From Cyanobacteria bacterium FACHB-502 (GTDB taxonomy: Bacteria; Cyanobacteriota; Cyanobacteriia; Elainellales; Elainellaceae), in NCBI GenBank assembly GCA_014695325.1, contig JACJNZ010000055.1, positions 62,001 to 126,000 of the forward strand: a stretch of DNA of 64,000 nucleotides, read 5' to 3'. Numbering within the stretch: the stretch's first letter is position 1; each line of letters begins with the position of its first letter. Positions 6,995 through 61,861 of the stretch are shown here, in pieces. A program made the translations under genes and the position numbers. The notes beneath the pieces are model-generated. The model was not told the origin of the DNA. It saw only the letters and a list, made by a program, of their open reading frames with translations, and did no database searches.

Positions 6995-7296
6995 GGAGCA
7001 AACTCGCCTTTAAGTTAAGTCTTCCAGAAAATACTGCAAGTTCATCAAAAGTTTCGATCGCGTCACAAGAATTGCCATTCTATAACGCTTAGCGGAGACA
7101 AAATAAACATCCGAATCGATCGTCCATTCCTCCGTATTCTTCAGCCTACTTGACAGAGTTATCCCTGGAAATGCACACCGATCAAGCCTTTAGGCAGATT
7201 TGCATTCTAAAGATACAGTAAATTTCTGGATCAGGCGTGTCATGCAGGAATAAAGAGTTGTAGACTACGCAAAGATACGGAAATACCAAGCAAAGT

Positions 7297-7391
7297 TCAC
7301 TCAGTGGTTCCACCCACTAAGTCTACCCAGTAAGTGGTCTATCCAATGAGTGTCTACCCGGTAAATCCGCTCGGTAAATACGCTTGGTTAC
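7297..7391. repeat. Degenerate tandem repeat, about 15 bp period
   Basis: Successive segments such as CTACCCAGTAAGTGG, TCTATCCAATGAGTG and TCTACCCGGTAAATC share a C-TACCC-GTAA-T core with 13-16 bp spacing over five to six units. The units are diverged. No protein is encoded and the role is unknown. Confidence 0.6.
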
Positions 7392-50244: not shown

Positions 50245-51591
50245 CTAGTAGCCCTGTACACCGGGAATCCAGCTTGTGCCTGCTAAAGGCAGCTTTGCCA
50301 TTGCCGCCGCTTCGACCGTCAGTGCAACCAGATCTTCCCGCTCCAGGTGATGCACGTTTTGCTTGCCGCAGGCGCGGGCGATCGTCGTCAGTTCCATATT
50401 CAGCGTTTTCAGATAGTTTTTTAGCCGGTGCGCTCCGACTTCTGGCTCTAGCCGCTTCTCTAAAATCGGGTCTTGAGTCGTGACGCCAACCGGACATTTC
50501 CCGGTGTGACAGTGATGACAGTAGCCGGGAGCCGTGCCAAGTTCCAGATAATCGTCGATCGCCGGATGATGCTCTCCGTTCTGAATATAGCTTTCGCTGT
50601 TGCAGCCCAGAGCCATCAGCACCGCCTGACCGATCGACACGGCATCCGCGCCCATTGCCAGAGCCTTTGCCACATCTGCTCCAGTCCGAATGCCACCGGA
50701 CACAATGAGCTGGACTTTGCCTTTCATGTCCATTTCTTCCAGTGCCTCAACCGCCTGCCGCAGAGCCGCCAGCGTGGGAATGCCAACGTGCTCAATAAAC
50801 ACCGTTTGGGTAGCAGCCGTGCCGCCCTGCATTCCATCCACAACGACGACATCTGCTCCGGCATGAACGGCGAGCTTGACATCGTTATAAGTGCGGGACG
50901 CTCCCACTTTGATATAAATCGGCTTTTCCCAGTCGGTTAGTTCGCGCAGTTCCTGAATTTTGATCGTCAGGTCATCGGGTCCGGTCCAGTCAGGATGACG
51001 ACAAGCCGATCGCTGATCCACGCCTTCGGGTAACGTTCGCATTGCCGCGACCCGCGGATTAATTTTTTGACCCAACAGCATTCCGCCACCGCCCGGCTTT
51101 GCGCCCTGACCGATCACGACTTCGATCGCATCTGCCTTCCGCACATCGTCCGGATTAAAGCCATAGCGAGACGGAAGACACTGATACACCAGCGTTTTAG
51201 AAGACCGTCGCTCCTCCTGAGTCATGCCGCCGTCGCCCGTCGTGGTGGATGTGCCCATTTCGGTCGCGGCGCGTCCGAGGGCTTCTTTGACGTTGGCAGA
51301 GAGAGAACCAAAGCTCATTCCGGCGATCGTAATTGGAATGTCTAGTTCGATCGGTTTGCTGGCAAATCGTGTACCTAGAACAGTCTTGGTAATGCACTTT
51401 TCTCGATAGCCTTCCAACGGGTAGCGAGTCAGTGAGGCTCCCAGGAAAACCAGATCGTCAAAGTGGGGCAGGCTGCGTTTTGCGCCCAGTCCTCGAATTT
51501 CATAGAGTCCGTGGGCAGCGGCGTTCTGGATGTAGTGGAGCGTGCGGCGATCGTATCCGGCGGATTCTTCGCGATAGATGTTGGAGGTCAT
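50245..51591 (-). CDS. mgsC: N-methylglutamate synthase FMN/FeS subunit (glutamate-synthase-like)
   Basis: A 448-residue homologue of the FMN-binding domain of glutamate synthase. It shows the TIM-barrel segments ITIAGMSFGSLSANVKEALGRAA, AIEVVIGQGAKPGGGGMLLG, VDGMQGGTAATQT and SGGIRTGADVAKALAMGADAV. The iron-sulfur cysteines are in YCHHCHTGKCPVG. In the N-methylglutamate pathway, MgsC transfers the methylamino group from gamma-glutamylmethylamide to 2-oxoglutarate together with MgsA and MgsB. It is last in the operon, separated from mgsB by about 330 bases containing a MITE. By sequence alone it could be another GltB-like protein; the gene context decides. Confidence 0.8.
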   Translation of the reverse strand: MTSNIYREESAGYDRRTLHYIQNAAAHGLYEIRGLGAKRSLPHFDDLVFLGASLTRYPLEGYREKCITKTVLGTRFASKPIELDIPITIAGMSFGSLSANVKEALGRAATEMGTSTTTGDGGMTQEERRSSKTLVYQCLPSRYGFNPDDVRKADAIEVVIGQGAKPGGGGMLLGQKINPRVAAMRTLPEGVDQRSACRHPDWTGPDDLTIKIQELRELTDWEKPIYIKVGASRTYNDVKLAVHAGADVVVVDGMQGGTAATQTVFIEHVGIPTLAALRQAVEALEEMDMKGKVQLIVSGGIRTGADVAKALAMGADAVSIGQAVLMALGCNSESYIQNGEHHPAIDDYLELGTAPGYCHHCHTGKCPVGVTTQDPILEKRLEPEVGAHRLKNYLKTLNMELTTIARACGKQNVHHLEREDLVALTVEAAAMAKLPLAGTSWIPGVQGY

Positions 51592-51924
51592 GGGGAGAGG
51601 GGAGGGGGGAGAGCTTTTGCGGTAATGGGTCTAAAAGGGAATTGAGATTTTTGTTGAAAATGGTTTGCCTTTCCGGTAAGGGTTATTGCCATTTTCTGGA
51701 TGAGGGCGATCGATCAAAGCCTTAAAACGAAATACGATCGCTTGCTCTAGCTTGAGCAATTCTGAATTCGCATTAGTACTAGGCGTTGCTGAATCGGGAT
51801 ACGAACGGTGCAAATTTAGCTTCTGCATCGCCCCCTCAATCCCCCAATGCTGGAGGACTTTGAATTCTGGTTCCCCCCAAATTGGGGGGCTAGGGGGGCG
51901 TATCATACGCTTATTCAGCAACGC
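51592..51924. other. mgsB-mgsC intergenic region with a MITE
   Basis: An unusually long gap inside an otherwise compact operon. The MITE-like copy at 51782-51925 fills nearly half of it. The rest (51592-51781) shows no coding frame or obvious promoter. Confidence 0.6.
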
Positions 51925-51925
51925 C
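51782..51925 (-). mobile_element. MITE-like element, copy 3
   Basis: A 144-bp element inverted relative to copies 1 and 2. Its reverse complement is nearly colinear with copy 1 throughout. Ends are GGCGTTGCTGAATC and ATTCAGCAACGCC. The flanking octamers TAGTACTA and TAGTATTC share 6 of 8 bases, including the first five, consistent with an older target duplication. It lies inside the methylamine operon, and its outer end contributes the last base of the mgsB stop codon. Confidence 0.85.
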
Positions 51926-52638
51926 TAGTATTCCTGGTTGGCGTCAGCATTCCAGTAATAGAGCTGGCGGGCGGAGGCGATCCGTTTGAAATCCTGGGGA
52001 GCGTGAGGGAGGTTGGCTTGGTCAAGGAGGGTTTGAACGATCGCATAGTCCTCCTCGGTCATGGGTTCAAACTGAGCATCTGCGCCCAACGATTTCACGG
52101 TTCCTCGGATATAAATGACGGCTTCGTAGAGCGAATCGCCCAGCGCGTCTCCGGCGTTGCCGCAAATTACCATTCTGCCTGCCTGCGCCATAAAGCCGGA
52201 AAAGCTGCCGACACTGCCGCCCACCACAATATCGGCTCCTTTCAAGGAAATGCCGCAGCGCAAGCCTGCATCGCCATCGATGACTAATAGCCCACCGTGG
52301 GCAGACGCACCTGCCGACACCGAAGCAAAACCCTTAACGTGAACCCTGCCAGACATCATGTTTTCGGCGACTCCGGTCCCAGCGTTACCGTAAAGGGTGA
52401 CGATCGCCTGTTTATTCATGCCTGCCGTGTAGTAGCCCGTATGCCCGTGGATCTCGACTTCGATCACCGTATCGATGCCCACCGCTAGATTATGCGCTCC
52501 GTTGGGATTGACGATCGCCACTTTGTGTCCATTGGGCAATTCAGAATGGTGCAGGTAGGCGTTCACCGCTCGCACAGGAGTTTGGCTCAGATCAAAGGTG
52601 TGGGTTTCGGTTGGGGAAGCAATGATTACACTGTCCAT
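51925..52638 (-). CDS. mgsB: N-methylglutamate synthase GXGXG subunit
   Basis: A 237-residue homologue of the C-terminal GXGXG (right-handed beta-helix) domain of glutamate synthase large subunit. It has the repeated glycine pattern: VVGGSVGSFSGFMAQAGR, ICGNAGDALGDSLYEAV, and GNAGTGVAENMMSGRVHV. In the split N-methylglutamate synthase (and GlxC proteins) this domain is a separate subunit, expected to stabilise the FMN subunit and help couple the amidotransferase. It overlaps mgsA by 13 bases. Its stop codon (TAG) lies at the edge of a MITE. Confidence 0.8.
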   Translation of the reverse strand: MDSVIIASPTETHTFDLSQTPVRAVNAYLHHSELPNGHKVAIVNPNGAHNLAVGIDTVIEVEIHGHTGYYTAGMNKQAIVTLYGNAGTGVAENMMSGRVHVKGFASVSAGASAHGGLLVIDGDAGLRCGISLKGADIVVGGSVGSFSGFMAQAGRMVICGNAGDALGDSLYEAVIYIRGTVKSLGADAQFEPMTEEDYAIVQTLLDQANLPHAPQDFKRIASARQLYYWNADANQEY

Positions 52639-53516
52639 ACATACATCTCCTCTGGAGCGGGTTCGTAGAGGTTTGCCTGATTGACGTCAGGCAGATGGGC
52701 AAGCGATCGAAATTCAGAAGCGATCGCCACATAGTCATCGGTTTCGGCAACGATCGCAGGTTTGCAGGCAAAAGGATCGCGAACGAGGGCAAGTTTATCT
52801 GCGGTTCCCATCAGGAAGGTATAAAAGCCGTCCAGTTCCTCAAAGCCGTTTTGAATCGCCGTTTCCAGATCATCGCCTTCCTGCATCCGCCATTCCAGGA
52901 AACGGCAGGCAGCTTCGGTATCGTTGTCGGTCTCAAAGTGAATGCCACGTGGTTCTAATTTCCGCCGAATCTCGTTCGGGTTCGAGAGCGAGCCATTGTG
53001 AACCAGACAAAAATCTTCGCCTGCGGTGAACGGGTGAGCGTGTGCCGGAGTGACGGCAGATTCGGTTGCCATCCGCGTGTGTCCGACAGCATGAGACCCT
53101 TTGAGCGATCGAAATTCATATCGGTCAGACACGGCGATCGGTGTCCCGGTGTCTTTGTACAAATCGATTGTGCGTCCGGCAGACAGCAGGTGAAGCTGCG
53201 GATAAGCCGACTTCAGCCACGCTCTAACCGTCTGCGGCGACAGATCAGTCATGAGGACTGCCTGATTGCCATGAGGGTCGATCGTTGCCTTGCCCAGTTC
53301 GCTCAATGATTGGGGGAGAGCTGACCAGTCAATCGCCTGATTGCCCGCGTAGAGGCTGTATTTGCGATAGGGATCGGGCAGAGTAGCGGTGAATACTGCA
53401 AGTCCGGCGGAGTCAGGTCCGCGATCGCTCATGCCAACCAGCATGGGGACAAGCAGTTCGCCAAGGGAATCGCGCAGGGATGGGGTTTTGATCAGGAGTC
53501 CAACGATGCCGCACAT
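52626..53516 (-). CDS. mgsA: N-methylglutamate synthase class-II amidotransferase subunit
   Basis: A 296-residue class-II (Ntn) glutamine amidotransferase domain. It starts MCGIVGLL, so Cys2 becomes the N-terminal nucleophile after Met removal. GHTRMATESAVTPAHAHPF and LVHNGSLSNPNEIRRKLE carry the amide-binding Arg, Asn and Gly residues. In N-methylglutamate synthase this subunit releases methylamine from gamma-glutamylmethylamide and channels it to MgsC. It overlaps mgsB and lies 36 bases after gmaS. Without context it would be called GlxB or GltB-N-like. Confidence 0.82.
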   Translation of the reverse strand: MCGIVGLLIKTPSLRDSLGELLVPMLVGMSDRGPDSAGLAVFTATLPDPYRKYSLYAGNQAIDWSALPQSLSELGKATIDPHGNQAVLMTDLSPQTVRAWLKSAYPQLHLLSAGRTIDLYKDTGTPIAVSDRYEFRSLKGSHAVGHTRMATESAVTPAHAHPFTAGEDFCLVHNGSLSNPNEIRRKLEPRGIHFETDNDTEAACRFLEWRMQEGDDLETAIQNGFEELDGFYTFLMGTADKLALVRDPFACKPAIVAETDDYVAIASEFRSLAHLPDVNQANLYEPAPEEMYVWTV

Positions 53517-53552
53517 AGGGGGATAAGGGGTGAAGGGGTGAGGGAGATGGGG

Positions 53553-54881
53553 TTAGAAGAATTCCAGGTAGCGATCGACTTCCCAATCGGAAACATGGCG
53601 GCAGTATTCGATCCATTCCATGCGTTTCAGATTGATAAATTCGGGGGCAAGTGGACCAAGGGCGGATTGGATTACAGCGTCGGATTCGAGAGCGTCGATC
53701 GCCTCGCTTAGAGATTGGGGCAGGGTGCCGATGCCTTTTTCTTCGAGCTGTTCGGGAGTGAGGTCGTAGAGGTTGCCGTTAAAGGGTTCACCGGGGTCAA
53801 GTTCGCGTTCGATGCCGTCTAGCCCGGCTGCGATCACGGCGGCGGTTGCCAGATAGGGGTTGCAGGAGCCATCTGCAAGGCGCAATTCGAGCCGTCCACC
53901 AGGAATACGCACCATGCTCGATCGGTTGTTGTCGCCGTAGCTGATGTAAGCGGGTGCCCAAGTTGCGCCACTGAGCGATCGTCCCACTACCAGTCGCTTA
54001 TAGGAATTGATCGAAGGGGCACAGAGAGCAGTCAGGGCATGGGCATGGGTCAGCAGTCCGCCGAGGAAGTGGTATGCCAGTTTTGAGAGTCCCAGTTGGT
54101 GCGGGTCGCTGTGGTCTTCAAAAAGATTGGTGTTACCTTCGGCGAGCGAGCAGTGAATATGCATCCCTGTTCCGGTGCGGTTGGAGAAGGGCTTGGGCAT
54201 AAAGGAGCAGATTAGCCCCATGTCGCGGGCAATCTCTGAGGCTGCCATCTTGAAGAAAATATAGCGATCGGCGGTGGTGAGGCAGTCGGTGTAGGTGTAG
54301 TTGATTTCAAACTGTCCGTTGGCGTCTTCATGATCGACCTGATAGATATCGAAACCAACCTGTTGCAGGTTATCCACCAGCTTCTCGATGTAGCCAATGC
54401 TGCGCGACAATCCTTTGTAGTCGTAGCAGGGCTTGTCGAGGGTGTCGGTGAAATCATAGGGGCGAAGGTTGCCGCGTCGGTCTTTTTTGAGCAGCATGAA
54501 TTCGGGTTCGACTCCCGTGTTGAGCGTCCAGCCGTGCTGTGTGAGGCGATCGATCTGCTGCATTAGCACGTAGCGGGCATCGTAGGGGTAGGGTTTGCCT
54601 TTGACATGACCCACGCAAACAATTCGGGCGAATCCGGGCATCCAGGGAACCAGAGAAAGCGTGTTTAAATCACCAACTGCCAGATAATCTGGGCTGTTCG
54701 GTTCCATGCCCAGTCCCCAGACGGCAAATCCGGCAAATCCGGCTCCCGGATCAAGAATGTCTTCCAGATGGGAGGCAGGAACGGCTTTGGTTTTGGCAAC
54801 ACCGTGAATGTCTACGAACTGAGCGAGGATGAATTTGATTTGATGGGCTTCGAGAAACTGTTTGGCTTCGGTAAGGTTCAT
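53553..54881 (-). CDS. gmaS: Gamma-glutamylmethylamide synthetase (glutamine-synthetase-like)
   Basis: A 442-residue glutamine-synthetase-fold ligase from the ATG at 54881. GMAS makes gamma-glutamylmethylamide from glutamate, methylamine and ATP. It shows the glutamine-synthetase N-terminal segment ([14 protein letters not shown]), the metal-binding [45 protein letters not shown], and the ATP/glutamate region [21 protein letters not shown]. Its C-terminal half resembles GMAS/GlnT sequences rather than GlnA ([35 protein letters not shown]). It lies between the dehydrogenase and synthase genes. GlnT-type glutamine synthetase is the main alternative. Confidence 0.8.
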
Positions 54882-54937
54882 GGGTTCTGGGGAAGGTAGA
54901 AATTGTTGGAGGAATGGCAGCGGTGCGACATCGTCCC

Positions 54938-55048
54938 CTCGATTCCCCAAGGTTCGGGGATCTTGAGCAGTTCAACCTTTTTTATGCAAAAGAACTGCTT
55001 GCATCGGCTCAGTTTCGCCCAAAGCTGGGGGGTTAGAGGGACGGTTCG
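54938..55048 (-). mobile_element. Decayed MITE-like relic overlapping the mgdC 3' end
   Basis: ATCGTCCCCTCGATTCCCC at the left and GCCCAAAGCTGGGGGGTTAG at the right parallel the CATCGCCCCCTCAATCCCCC and CCCCAAATTGGGGGGCTAG blocks of MITE copy 3, in the same order. The middle has diverged and the terminal inverted repeats are gone. The mgdC stop codon and its last residues fall inside this relic. Confidence 0.5.
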
Positions 55049-58000
55049 GCGAATTATCGTAACTTCTTCGATTTTTAGTGAGAGAACTGTTTGCGTCGCT
55101 ACCTAATTCCGCAGCAATTTCATTCAGAGTTTGCCAAACATAGTGGCGGTAAGTTGTGTCGCACCACAAACGGTATTGGGGAATTGGAGCCTCTTCGATC
55201 GCCACAATCACGGATACGCCGATCGCCGAGGTCAGCACAATAGGACGATCGCTAGAATTAAACGATCGAAAACTGACGTTGCAGATTTGAGCAAATAGAT
55301 CGTGAACCGCTTTACCTGAAAGAACGATCGCCAGATCTTGCCGCAAGACGGGATAAACCTGCGGCGGCAGATTTGAATCAGCCCGAAGCCGATGCGAAGC
55401 ACTTTTCCCTTCGGGGTAATCGCCAATCTCTCCATCGTCCTCGATTAGAAATTCTGTCAGTCCCAGTCGGGCGATGCGTCCACCGTTCGCCAAAGGGAGC
55501 CAGGAATTCGGGCGATCGGGAATTGGGAATTCGTGCGCTTCCAGCCATGCCGCCGCACCTGCTCCTTTTACGCCGAATCGGGGGAGCGCAGAGACATCAG
55601 CTAAATCGACTAAATCATCTGTTTCAGAAATCAAGGGGATGATTGCGGCAGGCTTTTGCTCAAGCTTTTGCTCAAGCTTTTGCTCAAACTCAAGATGGCT
55701 TGCCTCAGGCAGCGGCGATGCCGTTTTCTGGCGGGTGTTTGCTGGGTCATAAAACGGAGTTGGGGTCACGGTGGCAGTGATCAGGAAACCATCCGATCGC
55801 CTCACCGTAAATTGACTTCCCACTTGAGATAGCTCTGGTTTGACATACGCCAGCCCAATATGGCGAGCGAGTGAGGGACTGTAAGCAATGCTGGTAATCC
55901 GTCCGGCAATGTCGCCGTTGTGAATCACCAGATGGCATTCCTGAGGCGGCGTGCCACTAAACTCGTTGAGGGTAAAACCAATCAGGATTTGTTTGGGCGA
56001 GCGATCGGCATGAATCTGGAGGCTGCGCTGGCCAATGAAGAAGGGTTTGTCAGTTTTCACTGCCCAGTTGAGGTTCGCTTCATAGGGTGTGGTGAGTCCG
56101 TCCGTGTCCTGTCCGACGATCAGGTGTCCTTTTTCCAGCCGCAGCAGCCTTTGTGCTTCCACGCCGAAGGGTTGAAGGCTGTAGGGCTTACCTGCCCGGG
56201 TTAGGGCGTCCCAAAGGACGGGGGCATTTTCGGCAGGAACGTGGATTTCGTAGCCCCACTCGCCCACAAAACCGACGCGCATGAGGAGAGCTGGAATGCC
56301 TGCCACCGTTGCCGATTGCACTGCGAGATAGGGAAACGCCGCGCTCGACAAGTCCAGATCGGTAAGCTGGCTCAGCACAGCACGGGAAAGCGGACCCGCG
56401 AGATTCACTGCCGATTGCGCCCCGGTCAAATTGACTAAACCGCAGTCCATTCGCCACATCGTATTCAGGCGAGACAGCTCGCGATAAATTGAAGCGGCGT
56501 TAGAGGTCGTCGTTGTGAAATAGAAATGGTCTTCGCCCAGCCGGGCAATCACGCCATCGTCGATCACCACGCCCGACTCGTCCAGCATCAGCGCGTAGCG
56601 GGTCATCCCGACTTTCAGATTTGCATAGCGTCCGGTGTAAACGCGCTCTAGAAAAGCGGCTGCGTCCCGTCCGCGAATCTCCAGCTTGCCCAGCGTTCCC
56701 ACGTCGATCAACCCAACGCGCTGCCGCACGGCGAGAACCTCGTCCTGGATGCAGGCTTCCCGGTTTTTGTTGGGCTGCTGATAGTATTCTGGTCTGCGCC
56801 ACTGTCCGGCAGACATCCACTTGGCGTTGAGGGCAAGGTGGCGATCGTGCAGCAGTGTTCTTCGCTCTGGCGTGAATCCGCGTCCGGCGAGGTGCGACAT
56901 CGGCACAGGATGAAAAAATGGTCGCGCCGTCGTGGTTCCGACCTGTCCTGGTGTTTTGCCGGTCAGCTTCGCCAGAATTCGCAGCGCATTCACATTAGAA
57001 TGTTTGCCCTGACTTGGACCCATTCCCACGGTCGTAAACCGCTTCAATAATTCAATATTGTCAAATCCTTCCTGAATTGCATTCGGAAAATCTTTGTATT
57101 GCAGATCTTCATCGAAATCGACAAAGTTTTTACCCTGCGGGTGAGGCACGATCGCCCAGGGATGGGACGGTGATTCTGATTCTGCGGGGAGATTGATCGC
57201 CACCGATTCCCCACCGCTGAGAAAAGCAATCGCCGACCGTGCCGCCCGTTCTCCGTCGCTTCGTTTATTCTCCGGCTGATACACCCCATTGACCCGACCG
57301 CAAGCAAATACACCCGGCAGCAGCAAATCCGGCACAAACTGCTGAATTCGGTCGTCAAAACGCATCTTTGCCCCTGCCTGATAAAGCAAATTTGCCGCTC
57401 CCGCCCAACCCACACTCATGAGAATGCCATCACAGGCGATCGTCTGACGAGATTCAATTTGCGGCTGTCCGTTTCGCATCGGACAAATCACTGCCGCACA
57501 AACGCCATCGCCTTGAGGATTTGCTTTTGCCTCATAAATTGCCTGTCCGGGATAGATTGGAACGCCTCGCTCACGCACCGTCTGTACCACTGTCGAACTC
57601 GGAATATCCGATCGCAAATCTACGATCGCCCCGACTTCCATCCCATGCGCCAGCAAATCCAGAGCCGCCCGATAACCATCCTGATTTGCCGTAAAGACGA
57701 TCGCCCGGTGCATTGGCTTAACCGCATAGCGATAAATAAGCCGCTGTGCCGCCGAAGCCATCATGACGCCTGGCAAATCGTTGTTGCGAAAGACCGCAGG
57801 CTGTTCATAAGCCCCGCTTGCCACGATGACTGACTTTGCCCGCATTTTCGTCATGCGTGTGCCGTCTACTAGGGGAATCCAGAAGTCGGCATAGTAGCCT
57901 GCTGCTACTGTACCGGTGTAGAGCCGGATGCGGGGATGGGCTGTGACTGACTGAATAAGGGATTGGGTTTCGGCGGCGATCGATCGATCATCCCCAAGCT

Positions 58001-58613
58001 GGTAGAGTCCTACGCCGCCCGGTTTCGCGTTCTCATCCACAATCACCACATCTGCGCCTGCTTCGGCTGCGGTGAGTGCAGCAGTGAGTCCAGAAATGCC
58101 TGCGCCAATTACAAGCAAATCGCAAAAGTCATATCGCTTCGGGGTGCGTATCCAGGGCGTTTTGAAATCGACTTGCCCCAGCCCAGTTGTGCGACGAATC
58201 AGGCGTTCCCAAAAGGGAAAAAGCTTTTTGTTGTTGAACGTTTTGTAATAAAACCCAACCGGCAAGAAGGGCGATAAAAAGTTGAGAAAGCTAGCGCGAT
58301 CGTGCTCCACACCTCCGAACGTATTGACTGCTTGCAGCGACATTCCTGGCTCAATTGCCGTCACGTCTGCCCGCACATTCAGCTTCTCGCCGGACTGCAT
58401 CAGGGTATTCACATCATGATTCGCCAGGCTGAGAATTCCGCGTGGGCGGTGATATTTAAAGCTGCGTCCCAACACCTTTTGACCCGAAGCCCATAGCGCA
58501 GCAGCGATCGTATCTCCTGCATATCCGGTCAATACTTTCCCTTCAAACGAAAACTGAATGATTGTATTGCGATCGATCCATTCCCCAGGAATTGGCGGTA
58601 GACGATAACTCAT
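54972..58613 (-). CDS. mgdC: N-methylglutamate dehydrogenase alpha subunit fused to gamma subunit
   Basis: A 1213-residue sarcosine-oxidase-alpha-like protein; typical alpha subunits are near 1000 residues. In order: a ferredoxin-fold N-terminus (about 10-95), a nucleotide-binding flavoprotein domain with LLVIGAGISGLTAALTAAEAGAD (about 167-189), a middle domain (about 500-600; FTTVGMGPSQGKHSNVNALRIL), a GcvT-like folate-binding domain (about 610-950; GEWGYEIHVP, LIVGQDTDGLTTPYEANL), and a tandem EQKL linker near 980. The last ~190 residues (PRFGVKGAGAAAWL, RPNSWLPLANGGRIARLG, YRLWCDTTYRHYVWQTLNEIA) match the gamma subunit (SoxG/MgdD). The protein oxidises N-methylglutamate, passing the methyl carbon to tetrahydrofolate. 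Its start overlaps mgdB by 4 bases. Confidence 0.85.
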   Translation of the reverse strand: MSYRLPPIPGEWIDRNTIIQFSFEGKVLTGYAGDTIAAALWASGQKVLGRSFKYHRPRGILSLANHDVNTLMQSGEKLNVRADVTAIEPGMSLQAVNTFGGVEHDRASFLNFLSPFLPVGFYYKTFNNKKLFPFWERLIRRTTGLGQVDFKTPWIRTPKRYDFCDLLVIGAGISGLTAALTAAEAGADVVIVDENAKPGGVGLYQLGDDRSIAAETQSLIQSVTAHPRIRLYTGTVAAGYYADFWIPLVDGTRMTKMRAKSVIVASGAYEQPAVFRNNDLPGVMMASAAQRLIYRYAVKPMHRAIVFTANQDGYRAALDLLAHGMEVGAIVDLRSDIPSSTVVQTVRERGVPIYPGQAIYEAKANPQGDGVCAAVICPMRNGQPQIESRQTIACDGILMSVGWAGAANLLYQAGAKMRFDDRIQQFVPDLLLPGVFACGRVNGVYQPENKRSDGERAARSAIAFLSGGESVAINLPAESESPSHPWAIVPHPQGKNFVDFDEDLQYKDFPNAIQEGFDNIELLKRFTTVGMGPSQGKHSNVNALRILAKLTGKTPGQVGTTTARPFFHPVPMSHLAGRGFTPERRTLLHDRHLALNAKWMSAGQWRRPEYYQQPNKNREACIQDEVLAVRQRVGLIDVGTLGKLEIRGRDAAAFLERVYTGRYANLKVGMTRYALMLDESGVVIDDGVIARLGEDHFYFTTTTSNAASIYRELSRLNTMWRMDCGLVNLTGAQSAVNLAGPLSRAVLSQLTDLDLSSAAFPYLAVQSATVAGIPALLMRVGFVGEWGYEIHVPAENAPVLWDALTRAGKPYSLQPFGVEAQRLLRLEKGHLIVGQDTDGLTTPYEANLNWAVKTDKPFFIGQRSLQIHADRSPKQILIGFTLNEFSGTPPQECHLVIHNGDIAGRITSIAYSPSLARHIGLAYVKPELSQVGSQFTVRRSDGFLITATVTPTPFYDPANTRQKTASPLPEASHLEFEQKLEQKLEQKPAAIIPLISETDDLVDLADVSALPRFGVKGAGAAAWLEAHEFPIPDRPNSWLPLANGGRIARLGLTEFLIEDDGEIGDYPEGKSASHRLRADSNLPPQVYPVLRQDLAIVLSGKAVHDLFAQICNVSFRSFNSSDRPIVLTSAIGVSVIVAIEEAPIPQYRLWCDTTYRHYVWQTLNEIAAELGSDANSSLTKNRRSYDNSPNRPSNPPALGETEPMQAVLLHKKG
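55652..55687 (-). repeat. 12-bp in-frame triplicate in the alpha-gamma linker
   Basis: Three exact copies of GCTTTTGCTCAA encode the EQKLEQKLEQK stretch at the junction of the alpha and gamma portions of MgdC. This is a slippage-type linker expansion. Confidence 0.9.
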
Positions 58614-58867
58614 GACTCGCCTCCGTATAAATAGGTTTGTGTCACTTCGTCAGTTAATGTATTTCGCTCTGCAATAAACCAGGTGTTGCTGGGTGCGTGA
58701 CACCACCATTCGCGTTTGATGCCCGGAACATTATTTCGATAAAAGATGTAGGCTGCCCAAGTTTGATCATCTACGGAGTTAGGGTCAGGCATTTCGCGAT
58801 ACTCGCCGCCATACACAAATTCGCTGATCGATCGCGTACCATTAATGGGACAGGTCATTAACTTCAT
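58610..58867 (-). CDS. mgdB: N-methylglutamate dehydrogenase delta subunit (SoxD-like)
   Basis: An 85-residue delta subunit of the heterotetrameric sarcosine oxidase family. It begins MKLMTCPINGTRSISEFVYG and contains NNVPGIKREWWCHAPSNTWF and AERNTLTDEVTQTYL. Classical SoxD binds zinc with a CPxC pair plus His and Cys. Here the N-terminal pair is CPIN, so only one of its cysteines remains, while C56 and H57 (WWCHAPS) are near the second site. The CPINGxR form is, as I recall, common in N-methylglutamate-type delta subunits. It overlaps mgdC by 4 bases and follows mgdA by 21. Confidence 0.85.
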   Translation of the reverse strand: MKLMTCPINGTRSISEFVYGGEYREMPDPNSVDDQTWAAYIFYRNNVPGIKREWWCHAPSNTWFIAERNTLTDEVTQTYLYGGES

Positions 58868-58888
58868 CGCTGCTTTTCCTGTTATTTA

Positions 58889-60130
58889 TTAATGGGCAAC
58901 TGATGCCGCGCCTTTTTCACCAATCAATTCATACCGGGTAAATCGATCGATCGAAAAGTCTTGGATTAATTCGTGCGCTCGATCGTTCGCGACGGTGTAT
59001 GCCATCGTTTTGCCGCAAACTGGAGTCGCCTTAAAGCCCCAGGTTCCCCAGCCTGCATCCAAGTAAAATCCGGCGATCGGCGTTTTGCCCATCATCGGAG
59101 CGAAATCAGGCGTCATGTCTGCCATGCCTGCCCACTGGCGCACAATTTTGGCGTGAGAGAGGAAGGGAAACAGATCAAGCATGTGAGCCGCTAATTCTTC
59201 GGTGAAATCCAGCGTCGATCGCGTTGAATGCAGCTCATAGGGGTCAAGCGACGCGCCCATCACCAGTTCGCCCCGCGCCGTTTGGCTGACATAAACGTGC
59301 AAATTGCCAGACACAATAATCGGGTCAAGCCAGGGCTTCATCGGTTCGCTCACCAGAGCTTGCAGCGGATGGACGTAGAGGGGCGATCGAATTCCCACCA
59401 TTTGCAGCAAACGCGGCGTAAACCCAGCAACGGCACAGAGGACACGCGGCGTTTCGATCGTCCCTCGTGAAGTTTCGACTCCGGTAACGCGATCGGACTT
59501 CACCTGAATTCCCAATACTTCCGTTTGCTGATGAATTTCTACGCCGCGCTGATCTGCCCCTCGCCCATAGCCCCAGGCGACCGCATCGTGTCGAGCAATG
59601 CTTCCCGGCGCATGATACAGAGCACCCAAAATCGGCGCGTGACCGTTACAGGTCAGATCCATTTGCGGGCAGGCTTCCTGAATCTCATCAGGACTGACCA
59701 ACTCACTGTTCACACCGATATGCTTATTGGTTTCCGCCCGCCAGCGCATTGTTCGCAAGGTGGCATCGGTATGCGCCAGGGTGAAATGTCCCCGCGTCGA
59801 GTAAAACAGATTCAAATCAAAATCCTGCGACAAATCCTGCCACAAGCGCACCGACTCATCGTAAAACTTCACTCCTTCCGGCGTGAGGTAGTTCGATCGA
59901 ATAATCGTCGTATTTCGTCCCGTATTGCCGCCGCCCAAATAGCTTCTTTCCAGCACCGCCACATCGGTCATGCCATAGTCTCGTGCCAGATAGTAAGCGG
60001 CTGCTAAGCCATGTCCACCCCCGCCAATAATTACCGCGTCGTAGCTCGACTTCAGGCGATCGGGCTGGCGAAACATTCGCGGTTCTGGATGGTCTTTAGT
60101 AAGGGCAAAGCGCAGCAGATTAAGCGGCAT
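58889..60130 (-). CDS. mgdA: N-methylglutamate dehydrogenase beta subunit (SoxB-like)
   Basis: A 413-residue DAO-family flavoprotein. The FAD Rossmann motif is AVIIGGGGHGLAAAYYLA (about 32-49), followed by the hallmark VLERSYLGGGNTGRNTTIIRSNY of heterotetrameric sarcosine oxidase beta subunits. The C-terminal FYLDAGWGTWGFKATPVCGK closes the FAD site. It carries the amine-oxidising active site in the complex. It heads the mgd-gma-mgs gene run and lies 92 bases downstream of purU. Sarcosine oxidase beta is the alternative, but gmaS and mgsABC next door favour N-methylglutamate as substrate. Confidence 0.85.
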   Translation of the reverse strand: MPLNLLRFALTKDHPEPRMFRQPDRLKSSYDAVIIGGGGHGLAAAYYLARDYGMTDVAVLERSYLGGGNTGRNTTIIRSNYLTPEGVKFYDESVRLWQDLSQDFDLNLFYSTRGHFTLAHTDATLRTMRWRAETNKHIGVNSELVSPDEIQEACPQMDLTCNGHAPILGALYHAPGSIARHDAVAWGYGRGADQRGVEIHQQTEVLGIQVKSDRVTGVETSRGTIETPRVLCAVAGFTPRLLQMVGIRSPLYVHPLQALVSEPMKPWLDPIIVSGNLHVYVSQTARGELVMGASLDPYELHSTRSTLDFTEELAAHMLDLFPFLSHAKIVRQWAGMADMTPDFAPMMGKTPIAGFYLDAGWGTWGFKATPVCGKTMAYTVANDRAHELIQDFSIDRFTRYELIGEKGAASVAH

Positions 60131-60222
60131 AAAACGATAGATGCATGAATTTCAGGATGAACTTAAAAGAAATATCTTTTGAGGCGTGCTAAAGGGGATA
60201 CATTGCCCTTTTCAAATCTCCT

Positions 60223-61122
60223 TTAACGAAATACAACAGTCTTATTTCCGTGAACCAGAACGCGATCCTCAACGTGATACCTTAGCCCACGCGCCAAAAC
60301 GGTTTTTTCGATATCTCTGCCGTAGCGAATTAAATCTTCCACAGCATCCGAATGGTCAATCCGAATCACATCCTGCTCGATAATGGGTCCTGCATCGAGT
60401 TCAGATGTGACATAGTGACAGGTCGCACCAATTAATTTGACGCCGCGTTGATGCGCCTGGTGATAGGGTTTTGCGCCAATAAAAGACGGCAAAAAGGAAT
60501 GATGGATATTAATAATTCGACCAGGATATCGATCGCACACCTCCGACGACAACACCTGCATATAGCGTGCCAGCACCATCACATCGCCATTCACCGACTC
60601 AAACAGGTGCATGATTTTGTCGTAGGCGATCGTCTTCGTTTCCGGTGTAACGGGCACATGATAGTAAGGAATACCGTGCCACTCGACCAGCCCGCGAAAT
60701 ATTTCGTGGTTAGAAATGACGCAGGGAATTTCAATGTCGAGTTCTCTGCTCTGCCAGCGGGCCAGCAAATCATAGAGACAGTGATCGGATTTGGATACTA
60801 GAATCACCACCCGCTTTTTCTGCGCCGAATCCGTTACCTGCCACTGCATTTTGAATTCATCGGCGATCGGCTGAAACTGCTCTCGCAACGCTTCGATTCC
60901 AAACGGCAGCGAATCAGCAAGAATTTCCTGCCGCATAAAAAATCGCTGAAAGTCCTGATCGGCGTGGTGTTGCGCCTCCACGATCCAGCCCTGATGACTG
61001 GCGATAAAGGAACTCACCGCCGCGACAATGCCAACGCGATCGGGACAGGACAAGCTAAGCGTATATCGGCGGGAAGAAGACACGAGACCAAATTCCCATT
61101 CGGAAACTTCGTTGAATATCAT
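60223..61122 (-). CDS. purU: Formyltetrahydrofolate deformylase
   Basis: Hydrolyses 10-formyl-tetrahydrofolate to formate and tetrahydrofolate. It has about 299 residues from the ATG at 61122 (MIFNEVSEW). The N-terminal ACT domain (YTLSLSCPDRVGIVAAVSSFIA) is followed by a formyl-transferase domain with RVVILVSKSDHCLYDLL, the catalytic region RIINIHHSFLPSFIGAKPYHQA, and CHYVTSELDAGPIIEQD. In methylamine-using bacteria purU often accompanies these genes and clears C1 units produced by the dehydrogenase. It is the first gene of the leftward set, divergent from the XRE-cupin regulator. Confidence 0.92.
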   Translation of the reverse strand: MIFNEVSEWEFGLVSSSRRYTLSLSCPDRVGIVAAVSSFIASHQGWIVEAQHHADQDFQRFFMRQEILADSLPFGIEALREQFQPIADEFKMQWQVTDSAQKKRVVILVSKSDHCLYDLLARWQSRELDIEIPCVISNHEIFRGLVEWHGIPYYHVPVTPETKTIAYDKIMHLFESVNGDVMVLARYMQVLSSEVCDRYPGRIINIHHSFLPSFIGAKPYHQAHQRGVKLIGATCHYVTSELDAGPIIEQDVIRIDHSDAVEDLIRYGRDIEKTVLARGLRYHVEDRVLVHGNKTVVFR

Positions 61123-61126
61123 CCAG

Positions 61127-61182
61127 CATTGTTTCCTGTCTGTCAACATTGTTTCCTAGCATGATTCACCTGCTATGATTCA
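61127..61182. promoter_or_regulatory. Candidate operator repeats in the purU-regulator gap
   Basis: Two direct repeat pairs lie in the 88-base divergent intergenic region: CATTGTTTCCT at 61127-61137 and 61147-61157 (exactly 20 bp apart), and ATGATTCA at 61161-61168 and 61175-61182 (14 bp apart). Their position and helical phasing suit binding sites of the adjacent regulator. Function is inferred. Confidence 0.45.
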
Positions 61183-61210
61183 TAGGGGCGCACCGCAGGA
61201 GAATTGCTGC

Positions 61211-61861
61211 ATGGCAGAAACCGTTCCCTCACACATTTCCTCAGACGTTTCCTCGCAGAAGCTGGAGCATCCCGGACTGGAGCATTACCTGGGCAATACG
61301 ATTCGTGACCTGCGCCAGCAACATGGGCTGACGATCGCAGAAATCGCCGATCGCGCCGGAATTTCTCGCGGAATGCTCTCTAAAATTGAAAATGCTCAAA
61401 CTTCCACCAGCCTGGAAACTCTGGAGAAACTGGCAAATGCGCTGGGCGTTTCCCTGTCTACCCTGTTTCGCAAATACGACATTCCCGAAGGCGGAGCGCA
61501 GTTGGTCAAAAACGGTAAAGGCATGGAAGTCGTGCGGCGCGGCACCAAACGTGGACATACCTACCAGCTTCTCGCCTACGATCAGGGACCAACCAAGCGA
61601 TTTGAACCCTTTCTGATCACAATGGATGATGCTTCCGAAGTCTTTCCCACCTTCGAGCATCCCGGCATCGAGTTTATTCACCTGCTCGAAGGCAAGCTGG
61701 AATACCGCCACGGACGACAAACTTACCTGCTCGAACCGGGCGACTCCCTCACCTTTAGAGGCGACATTCCCCACGGACCCGAAAAGCTGATCACCCTGCC
61801 AATTCGGTTCCTGACTATTATTTACTACGACAATTTTGCGATCGACGCTCGGGCAGAGTAA
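61211..61861 (+). CDS. XRE-cupin transcription regulator
   Basis: A 216-residue regulator from the ATG at 61211, which has a GGAG ribosome binding site 10 bases upstream. Residues about 30-85 form an XRE helix-turn-helix (TIRDLRQQHGLTIAEIADRAGISRGMLSKIENAQTS is the core, spanning two recognition helices). Residues about 135-205 form a cupin barrel (HPGIEFIHLLEGKLEYRHG, YLLEPGDSLTFRGDIPHG). This two-domain family (PuuR-like) senses small molecules through the cupin, often amines or their derivatives. Divergence from the methylamine genes suggests it controls them; the effector is unknown. Confidence 0.85.
   Translation: MAETVPSHISSDVSSQKLEHPGLEHYLGNTIRDLRQQHGLTIAEIADRAGISRGMLSKIENAQTSTSLETLEKLANALGVSLSTLFRKYDIPEGGAQLVKNGKGMEVVRRGTKRGHTYQLLAYDQGPTKRFEPFLITMDDASEVFPTFEHPGIEFIHLLEGKLEYRHGRQTYLLEPGDSLTFRGDIPHGPEKLITLPIRFLTIIYYDNFAIDARAE

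What the first reader, a model, noticed from the sequence alone, without database searches (positions are those of the whole stretch)
54972..58613. Alpha and gamma subunits of the dehydrogenase fused in one 1213-residue protein
The last ~190 residues of the SoxA-like protein match a gamma (SoxG/MgdD) subunit, joined through an EQKL triplicate linker. No separate gamma gene lies in the operon. In known heterotetrameric sarcosine oxidases and N-methylglutamate dehydrogenases the gamma subunit is separate, so this would be a three-polypeptide version of the complex.
Basis: partly seen in the sequence, partly recalled or inferred. Interest (0 to 1): 0.7.

Follow-up and report, generated by a model that had tools for sequence, protein, structure and literature searches.

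The report
Fused alpha-gamma subunit of methylglutamate dehydrogenase
A cyanobacterial enzyme for using methylamine, normally built from four separate proteins, has two of them joined into one long chain, and the same join appears to have arisen several times in different bacteria.

Summary
One uninterrupted 1213-codon ORF (54972-58613, minus strand) encodes a SoxA/MgdC-type alpha subunit, a 42-residue linker with an exact 3 x 12-bp repeat (EQKL x3), a gamma (SoxG/MgdD-type) domain and a short tail. The window domain alone matches no SoxG model. Its identity came from relatives: the same domain is a separate gene directly after alpha, with a 4-nt overlap, in 13 of 16 cyanobacterial loci. The family profile's best PDB hits are the sarcosine oxidase gammas, and the predicted fold ranks two of them first, by a narrow margin. 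No second gamma was found in the genome. The same fusion occurs in a species of the same genus and in 8 of 77 named loci. The 76-row tree needs five changes; three origins are secure, four if a gene cut by its contig end counts. A linker and a tail derive partly from interspersed repeats. The operon carries GMAS, mgsABC and mgdAB, so N-methylglutamate dehydrogenase is most likely. It is a new variant of a known enzyme that makes the role of MgdD easier to test.

The parts
54972..58613 (-). fused mgdC-mgdD ORF (alpha-gamma), 1213 aa
   Evidence: single ORF; NCBIfam and Pfam domains
55725..58613 (-). alpha (SoxA/MgdC-type) part, residues 1-963: Fer2_4, FAD/NAD-binding Rossmann, SO_alpha_A3, GCV_T, GCV_T_C
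   Evidence: Pfam; TIGR01372 828.9 bits, below its cut-off of 1164
55599..55724 (-). linker, residues 964-1005 (42 aa); 964-999 have pLDDT under 50 in the full-length model
55652..55687 (-). exact 12-bp tandem repeat x3 encoding EQKL x3
   Evidence: TRF
55080..55598 (-). gamma (SoxG/MgdD-type) domain, about residues 1006-1178
   Evidence: alignment; PDB profile hits; fold
54947..55051 (-). copy of an interspersed repeat that supplies the C-terminal tail and stop codon of the fusion
   Evidence: 72% identity over 105 bases to L007 (own genome) and 73% over 94 bases to the linker repeat of G411; a DNA search of the own genome found only one other place, 34 bases, E 5.7e-4
58610..58867 (-). mgdB / soxD (delta), overlaps the alpha start by 4 nt
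   Evidence: PF04267 4.6e-29
58889..60130 (-). mgdA / soxB (beta)
   Evidence: TIGR01373 1.4e-143
53553..54950 (-). glutamine synthetase III-type gene (GMAS, gamma-glutamylmethylamide synthetase, by context)
   Evidence: TIGR03105 649.9 bits, over its cut-off
52626..53516 (-). mgsA, class II glutamine amidotransferase (name by context)
   Evidence: Pfam
51925..52638 (-). mgsB, GXGXG protein (name by context)
   Evidence: Pfam
50245..51591 (-). mgsC, glutamate synthase-like FMN domain (name by context)
   Evidence: PF01645 7.6e-96
60223..61149 (-). purU, formyltetrahydrofolate deformylase
   Evidence: TIGR00655 373 bits, over its cut-off
61175..61861 (+). divergent HTH-cupin regulator; a relative was found in 49 of 83 loci

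Best explanation
The gene encodes a covalent fusion of the alpha (MgdC) and gamma (MgdD) subunits of N-methylglutamate dehydrogenase. With MgdA (beta) and MgdB (delta) it would form a three-polypeptide variant of the complex that oxidises N-methylglutamate made by GMAS/MgsABC from methylamine, passing the one-carbon unit to tetrahydrofolate; PurU beside it may release formate. The ancestor had alpha and gamma as separate genes overlapping by 4 nt, probably translationally coupled. Changes at that junction removed the stop and brought gamma into frame. The flexible linker would let the gamma domain take its usual place on alpha, now fixed at 1:1. SHOWN by computation: the ORF, homology of the C-terminal domain with the separate gene, its gamma-type fold, purifying selection on it, no detectable second gamma gene, recurrence of the fusion. 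INFERRED: that the fused chain assembles and is active, the substrate, the stoichiometry, the mutational path.
For: Single ORF. The same domain is a separate ORF with a 4-nt overlap after alpha in 13 of 13 unfused cyanobacterial loci, and an in-frame start with that overlap exists in 60 of 77 named loci (8 fused, 9 other spacing). A profile of 55 gammas hits the PDB sarcosine oxidase gammas 3ad7_C 9.9e-5, 1vrq_C 1.6e-4, 2gag_C 0.0034; next best 0.48. 24 of 55 members hit TIGR01375 at E<=0.01. AlphaFold model of the domain: pLDDT 85.4, pTM 0.81; VIA-align ranks 2gag_C (Z 15.8) and 1vrq_C (Z 15.7) first. No second gamma found. G411 of the same genus has the same fusion, 1208 aa; between the two, dN 0.17 / dS 1.19 for gamma (157 codons) and dN 0.08 / dS 1.05 for alpha (963 codons). 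In the window fusion no in-frame ATG or GTG lies between codons 949 and 1126, only TTG at 994, 1041 and 1090. Operon content: relatives of mgsA in 76, GMAS in 75, mgdA in 69 of 83 loci, some of them truncated.
Against: The window domain alone scores no SoxG or GCV_T hit, and 31 of 55 relatives do not hit TIGR01375 at E<=0.01. TIGR01372, 01373 and 01374 scores are all below the NCBIfam cut-offs. Other GcvT-fold proteins are nearly as close by fold (next Z 14.7) and Foldseek's E-value order puts T-protein 1wos first, the gammas 8th and 12th. The full-length model has pTM 0.55, so it does not show where gamma sits on alpha. In G411 the linker does hold in-frame starts (ATG 990, GTG 1008), so a separate gamma made from an internal start is not excluded there, nor from a TTG in the window. 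Six loci with mgs genes give no GMAS match (L037, L041, L048, L052, L077, L109). No expression or activity data were available.
Confidence: 0.9

Rival explanations
1. The fusion is a sequencing or assembly artefact (an indel near the short tandem repeat joins two frames).
For: In relatives alpha and gamma lie in different frames with a 4-nt overlap, so an indel could join them; the linker holds a perfect tandem repeat.
Against: The repeat unit is 12 nt, so a wrong copy number cannot change the frame. Another species of the same genus has the fusion with a different linker. The stop/start overlap and the gamma N-terminal motif are gone, not merely shifted. Two Zoogloea fusion types are each seen in three genomes, one of those six being a partial ORF (L083).
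Confidence: 0.03
2. The C-terminal domain is not gamma but another GcvT-fold module, or a degenerate copy of alpha's own folate domain.
For: 20 of 55 relatives hit PF01571 GCV_T at E<=0.01; T-proteins and LigM are close by fold.
Against: It is homologous to the gene in the mgdD position of the operon. The profile's only PDB hits below E 0.4 are sarcosine oxidase gammas. No GCV_T_C barrel match in this domain; among the 50 targets listed only the two gammas reach a TM-score of 0.67 by target length.
Confidence: 0.04
3. The complex is a heterotetrameric sarcosine oxidase rather than N-methylglutamate dehydrogenase.
For: All subunits are homologous to SoxB, SoxD and SoxA; six relatives' loci show mgs genes but no GMAS match.
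Against: Scores are under all three Sox cut-offs; the window operon encodes a glutamine synthetase III-type GMAS and all three NMG synthase subunits, found together in many of the relatives.
Confidence: 0.06

Closest known systems
N-methylglutamate dehydrogenase MgdABCD of Methyloversatilis universalis FAM5 (PMC5023235, passages read)
   Same: Same pathway gene set: gmas, mgsABC, mgdABCD; MgdD is called the gamma subunit and its mutant lost methylamine utilisation
   Different: There MgdC and MgdD are separate genes; here they form one chain
Heterotetrameric sarcosine oxidase (PDB 2GAG, 1VRQ, 3AD7)
   Same: Homologous alpha, beta and delta; gamma fold matched at Z 15.7-15.8
   Different: Gamma is a separate chain there; alpha, beta and delta here are below the NCBIfam Sox cut-offs
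Dimethylglycine oxidase/dehydrogenase (PDB 1PJ5, 4P9S); domain layout recalled, not tested
   Same: Flavoprotein oxidase and a GcvT-type folate domain in one chain; its folate domain is a fold match of the gamma domain
   Different: There the oxidase unit is fused to a catalytic folate domain; here the alpha, which already holds its own folate domain, is fused to the gamma subunit

Membership tests
N-methylglutamate dehydrogenase (MgdABCD) | SoxB-, SoxD- and SoxA-type subunits encoded together | tested here: met
   (E 1.4e-143, 1.6e-20, 5.2e-249)
N-methylglutamate dehydrogenase (MgdABCD) | Gamma (MgdD-type) domain present | tested here: met
   present as the C-terminal domain of alpha:
N-methylglutamate dehydrogenase (MgdABCD) | Four separate subunit genes as in described members | tested here: not met
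   one ORF for alpha and gamma; no other gamma gene found; hence filed as a variant, not an ordinary member
N-methylglutamate dehydrogenase (MgdABCD) | Linked to GMAS and mgsABC | tested here: met
N-methylglutamate dehydrogenase (MgdABCD) | Oxidises N-methylglutamate | not testable with these tools
   needs enzymology
Heterotetrameric sarcosine oxidase (NCBIfam SoxA/B/D) | Scores above curated cut-offs TIGR01372/01373/01374 | tested here: not met
   828.9/1164, 478.6/529.45, 73.1/116.5 bits
SoxG gamma family TIGR01375 | Window domain matches the model above its cut-off | tested here: not met
   no hit at E<=10; 24 of 55 relatives hit at E<=0.01
SoxG-type gamma subunit (fold) | Single GcvT-like folate-domain unit without C-terminal barrel, closest to solved gammas | tested here: met
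   (narrow margin over other GcvT folds); no GCV_T_C match in this domain

The most novel reading that the evidence does not exclude
The alpha/gamma junction of N-methylglutamate dehydrogenase is a fusion hot spot: an overlapping gene pair has repeatedly (at least three, probably four to six times) been turned into one polypeptide, in part by interspersed repeats that inserted at the overlap and now serve as the protein linker, showing that MgdD works bound 1:1 to MgdC.
Probability: 0.4. Interest if true: 0.55.

Novelty: new variant of a known kind. Interest (0 to 1): 0.45.

Why it matters
The Methyloversatilis study says that MgdD's exact function is not known although its mutant lost the ability to use methylamine (PMC5023235, passages). 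Natural fusions indicate that it acts physically bound to MgdC at 1:1, and they give ready-made single-chain constructs to test this. The loci also show N-methylglutamate operons in many cyanobacteria and interspersed repeats acting as protein linkers.

Tried and rejected
Direct HMM scans of the window domain gave no SoxG or GCV_T hit; the weak ribosomal L25 hit (E about 0.01) was seen in 1 of 55 members only and was dismissed as chance. The full-protein TIGR01375 hit was rejected as evidence because it lies in the alpha GcvT domain.

The idea that the window linker is itself an interspersed repeat was not supported: best other place in the genome E 0.0057 over 35 bases. The tail and the linker of G411 are repeat-derived.

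The idea that repeats generally cause the fusions is kept only as a possibility: the Zoogloea linker of L073, L074 and L078 matches 1 further place in each of those three genomes, 1 place in the L088 genome and none in the L072 genome; the linkers of L067, L113, L038 and L081/L088 were not tested for repeats.

The gamma/GMAS junction is not a general overlap (11 of 74 loci at -4 by a simple start-picking rule), so of these two junctions only alpha/gamma shows a conserved overlap.

Trees: 76 alphas by FastTree need 5 changes of the fused state and starred branches force 5. The careful 32-row cyanobacterial tree needs 3 changes, but its starred branches force only 2. AU tests: all four cyanobacterial fusions as one clade rejected (p 9e-10); window+G411+G387 rejected (p 0.002); window+G411+Aphanocapsa not rejected (p 0.20); Zoogloea as one clade not rejected (p 0.46). 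The first version of my summary said four secure origins; I lowered it to three, because G387 is cut by its contig end.

Literature searches showed no title or shown start of an abstract that describes an alpha-gamma fusion. One search found no paper. The one paper (PMC4941409, Bacillus sox locus) holds all four terms but I saw its listing only. The library lacks most subscription papers, so this is weak evidence of absence. Searches returned mostly irrelevant papers. PMC3160333 was seen in passages.

The full-length model was too uncertain (pTM 0.55) to place gamma on alpha, and no fold search was run on it.
Full report
WHAT IS THERE. The minus-strand ORF 54972-58613 (1213 aa, ATG) is uninterrupted. 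Residues 1-963 carry the alpha architecture of heterotetrameric sarcosine oxidase-type enzymes: Fer2_4, FAD/NAD-binding Rossmann, SO_alpha_A3, GCV_T and GCV_T_C. Then come a 42-residue linker with an exact 12-bp x 3 tandem encoding EQKL x3, a domain of about 170 residues and a short tail. Its neighbours on the same strand are mgdB/soxD (overlapping its start by 4 nt), mgdA/soxB, purU, a glutamine synthetase III-type gene (GMAS by context) and mgsA, mgsB, mgsC; a divergent HTH-cupin gene follows. The labels mgd/mgs follow the Methyloversatilis nomenclature (PMC5023235, passages). The three Sox-type subunits score below the NCBIfam sarcosine oxidase cut-offs. Relatives of mgsA, GMAS and mgdA were found in 76, 75 and 69 of 83 loci, some of them truncated, so N-methylglutamate dehydrogenase is the better reading. 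Against this, six loci with mgs genes give no GMAS match (L037, L041, L048, L052, L077, L109).

IS THE C-TERMINAL DOMAIN GAMMA? A direct scan says nothing: no SoxG or GCV_T hit for the window domain, and the SoxG hit of the full protein is in the alpha GcvT region. Relatives answer it. In 386 genomes sampled over the phylum, 3 have a match, the own genome included. In the 36 genomes of the family, 15 have one at E<=0.01, of which the G390 match (E 0.005, stops inside) looks like noise. I fetched 15 loci; with the window that makes 16. In 13 of the 16 the domain is its own ORF right after alpha, with a 4-nt start/stop overlap in all 13 (in L028 the start at the overlap is an internal ATG of the longest ORF, in L037 it is a GTG; in L035 and L036 alpha itself is broken into several ORFs, and L030 and L032 start inside it). 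A profile of 13 gammas has the three solved sarcosine oxidase gammas as best PDB hits (E 0.01-0.026); with 55 members E falls to 9.9e-5 for the best. 9 of 13 members hit TIGR01375 at E<=1 and 24 of 55 at E<=0.01. The predicted structure (pLDDT 85.4, pTM 0.81) is closest to 2gag_C and 1vrq_C by VIA-align (Z 15.8 and 15.7; next LigM 14.7, a narrow margin). Foldseek's E-value order puts T-protein first and the gammas 8th and 12th, but of the 50 rows listed only the gammas reach TM 0.67 by target length. Fold alone would not separate gamma from other GcvT-like domains; operon position and sequence profile do.

IS IT ALL THE GAMMA THERE IS? In the own genome (completeness 99.99) no further gamma is found by the SoxG model or by the domain itself, and there is only one full-length alpha (three further matches cover only the C-terminal GcvT-like part of the model). 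In the window fusion no in-frame ATG or GTG exists between codons 949 and 1126, only TTG codons, so separate translation of gamma is unlikely but not excluded. In G411 the linker does hold ATG 990 and GTG 1008, so there it is more open. G411, a species of the same genus, has the same fusion (1208 aa). Its alpha is 86% and its gamma 68-73% identical, depending on the alignment, with dN 0.08 / dS 1.05 and dN 0.17 / dS 1.19: both parts are under purifying selection.

HOW WIDESPREAD. The one genome-contig scan gave 78 loci. In 77 both the alpha end and gamma are present: 60 with an in-frame start at a 4-nt overlap, 8 fused, 9 with other spacing. Fused: Aphanocapsa GSE-SYN-MK-11-07L (MAG, 1254 aa), Zoogloea L073, L074, L078, L081, L083 (partial) and L088 (Z. 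dura, isolate), and Hydrogenophilales 16-64-46 (MAG, 1139 aa). G387 (L038) reads from alpha into gamma until its contig ends, so it is probable only. One Zoogloea MAG (JAFLDU01) yields both a split (L069) and a fused (L083) locus, so strain mixing or two operons must be allowed for. On a FastTree tree of 76 alphas, 10 of them fused, the state needs five changes, and starred branches force five. The careful cyanobacterial tree (32 rows, 4 fused) needs three, its starred branches only two. AU tests reject one clade for all four cyanobacterial fusions and for window+G411+G387, but not window+G411+Aphanocapsa nor one Zoogloea clade. Three origins are therefore secure (window genus, Zoogloea, Hydrogenophilales, the last resting on one MAG), four if G387 is accepted, and five are most parsimonious.

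HOW THE FUSIONS MAY HAVE ARISEN. The ancestral pair overlapped by 4 nt, which suggests translational coupling, in contrast to gamma/GMAS (11 of 74 with that overlap). In G411 the linker contains an interspersed repeat of about 120 bp: the 161-base query matches 45 places in its genome, itself included, at E<=0.001 (40 of 240 candidates scored); one lies directly after the gamma domain (79% identical) and forms its tail. In the window the tail and stop codon come from a related copy (72-73%), though a DNA search of the own genome found only one other place, 34 bases long; the EQKL linker is no such repeat. In Zoogloea L073, L074 and L078 the overlap is replaced by an in-frame insert that matches one other place in each genome. 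Insertion at the overlap is thus a plausible route for some fusions; whether it caused them or came later is open. The window and G411 fusions lack the N-terminal motif of separate cyanobacterial gammas (RLSPI...NGMP), while Zoogloea and Aphanocapsa keep traces of theirs. One separate gamma (L032) also lacks it.

FUNCTION. Methylamine is turned into N-methylglutamate by GMAS/NMGS, which NMGDH (mgdABCD) is predicted to oxidise to methylene-tetrahydrofolate and glutamate (PMC5023235, passages). That paper reports that the mgdD mutant lost methylamine utilisation and that the exact role of MgdD is not known. The fusion implies that MgdD acts bound to MgdC at 1:1. The linker has low confidence in the full-length model, as a flexible tether would, but the model's pTM of 0.55 does not fix the placement. 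Activity of the fused chain is inferred.

VERDICT. A real, conserved and recurrent subunit fusion: a new variant of a known enzyme. Papers listed in searches do not report it in title or shown abstract start; their full texts were not read for it, except passages of PMC5023235 ('fused' and 'fusion' occur 0 times there).

Noticed in passing
L026:6550-6680 and 7181-7302 (G411): An interspersed repeat of about 120 bp sits in-frame in the alpha-gamma linker and again at the 3' end of the gene; 45 matching places in the genome at E<=0.001, the query included.
   Followed up: partly
L037:6700-6960 (G400): The gamma gene of G400 carries an in-frame insertion made of related repeats after EFLIEE.
   Followed up: partly
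linkers of L073, L074, L078: The Zoogloea fusion linker resembles another dispersed repeat: one further match in each of these genomes, one in the L088 genome, none in the L072 genome.
   Followed up: partly
L069 and L083 (JAFLDU01, Zoogloea MAG): One MAG holds both a split and a fused alpha-gamma locus, suggesting strain mixing or two operons.
   Followed up: no
L048, L108, L089: The alpha gene is broken into several ORFs in these cyanobacterial MAGs: frameshifts from sequencing, or pseudogenes.
   Followed up: no
L037, L041, L048, L052, L077, L109: These loci give no match to the GMAS gene although mgs genes are present.
   Followed up: no
window 50245-61861 and cyanobacterial loci among L041-L109: An N-methylglutamate pathway operon in many cyanobacteria; the one search for papers with both 'N-methylglutamate dehydrogenase' and cyanobacteria gave 4, none about this by title (listing only).
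   Followed up: partly
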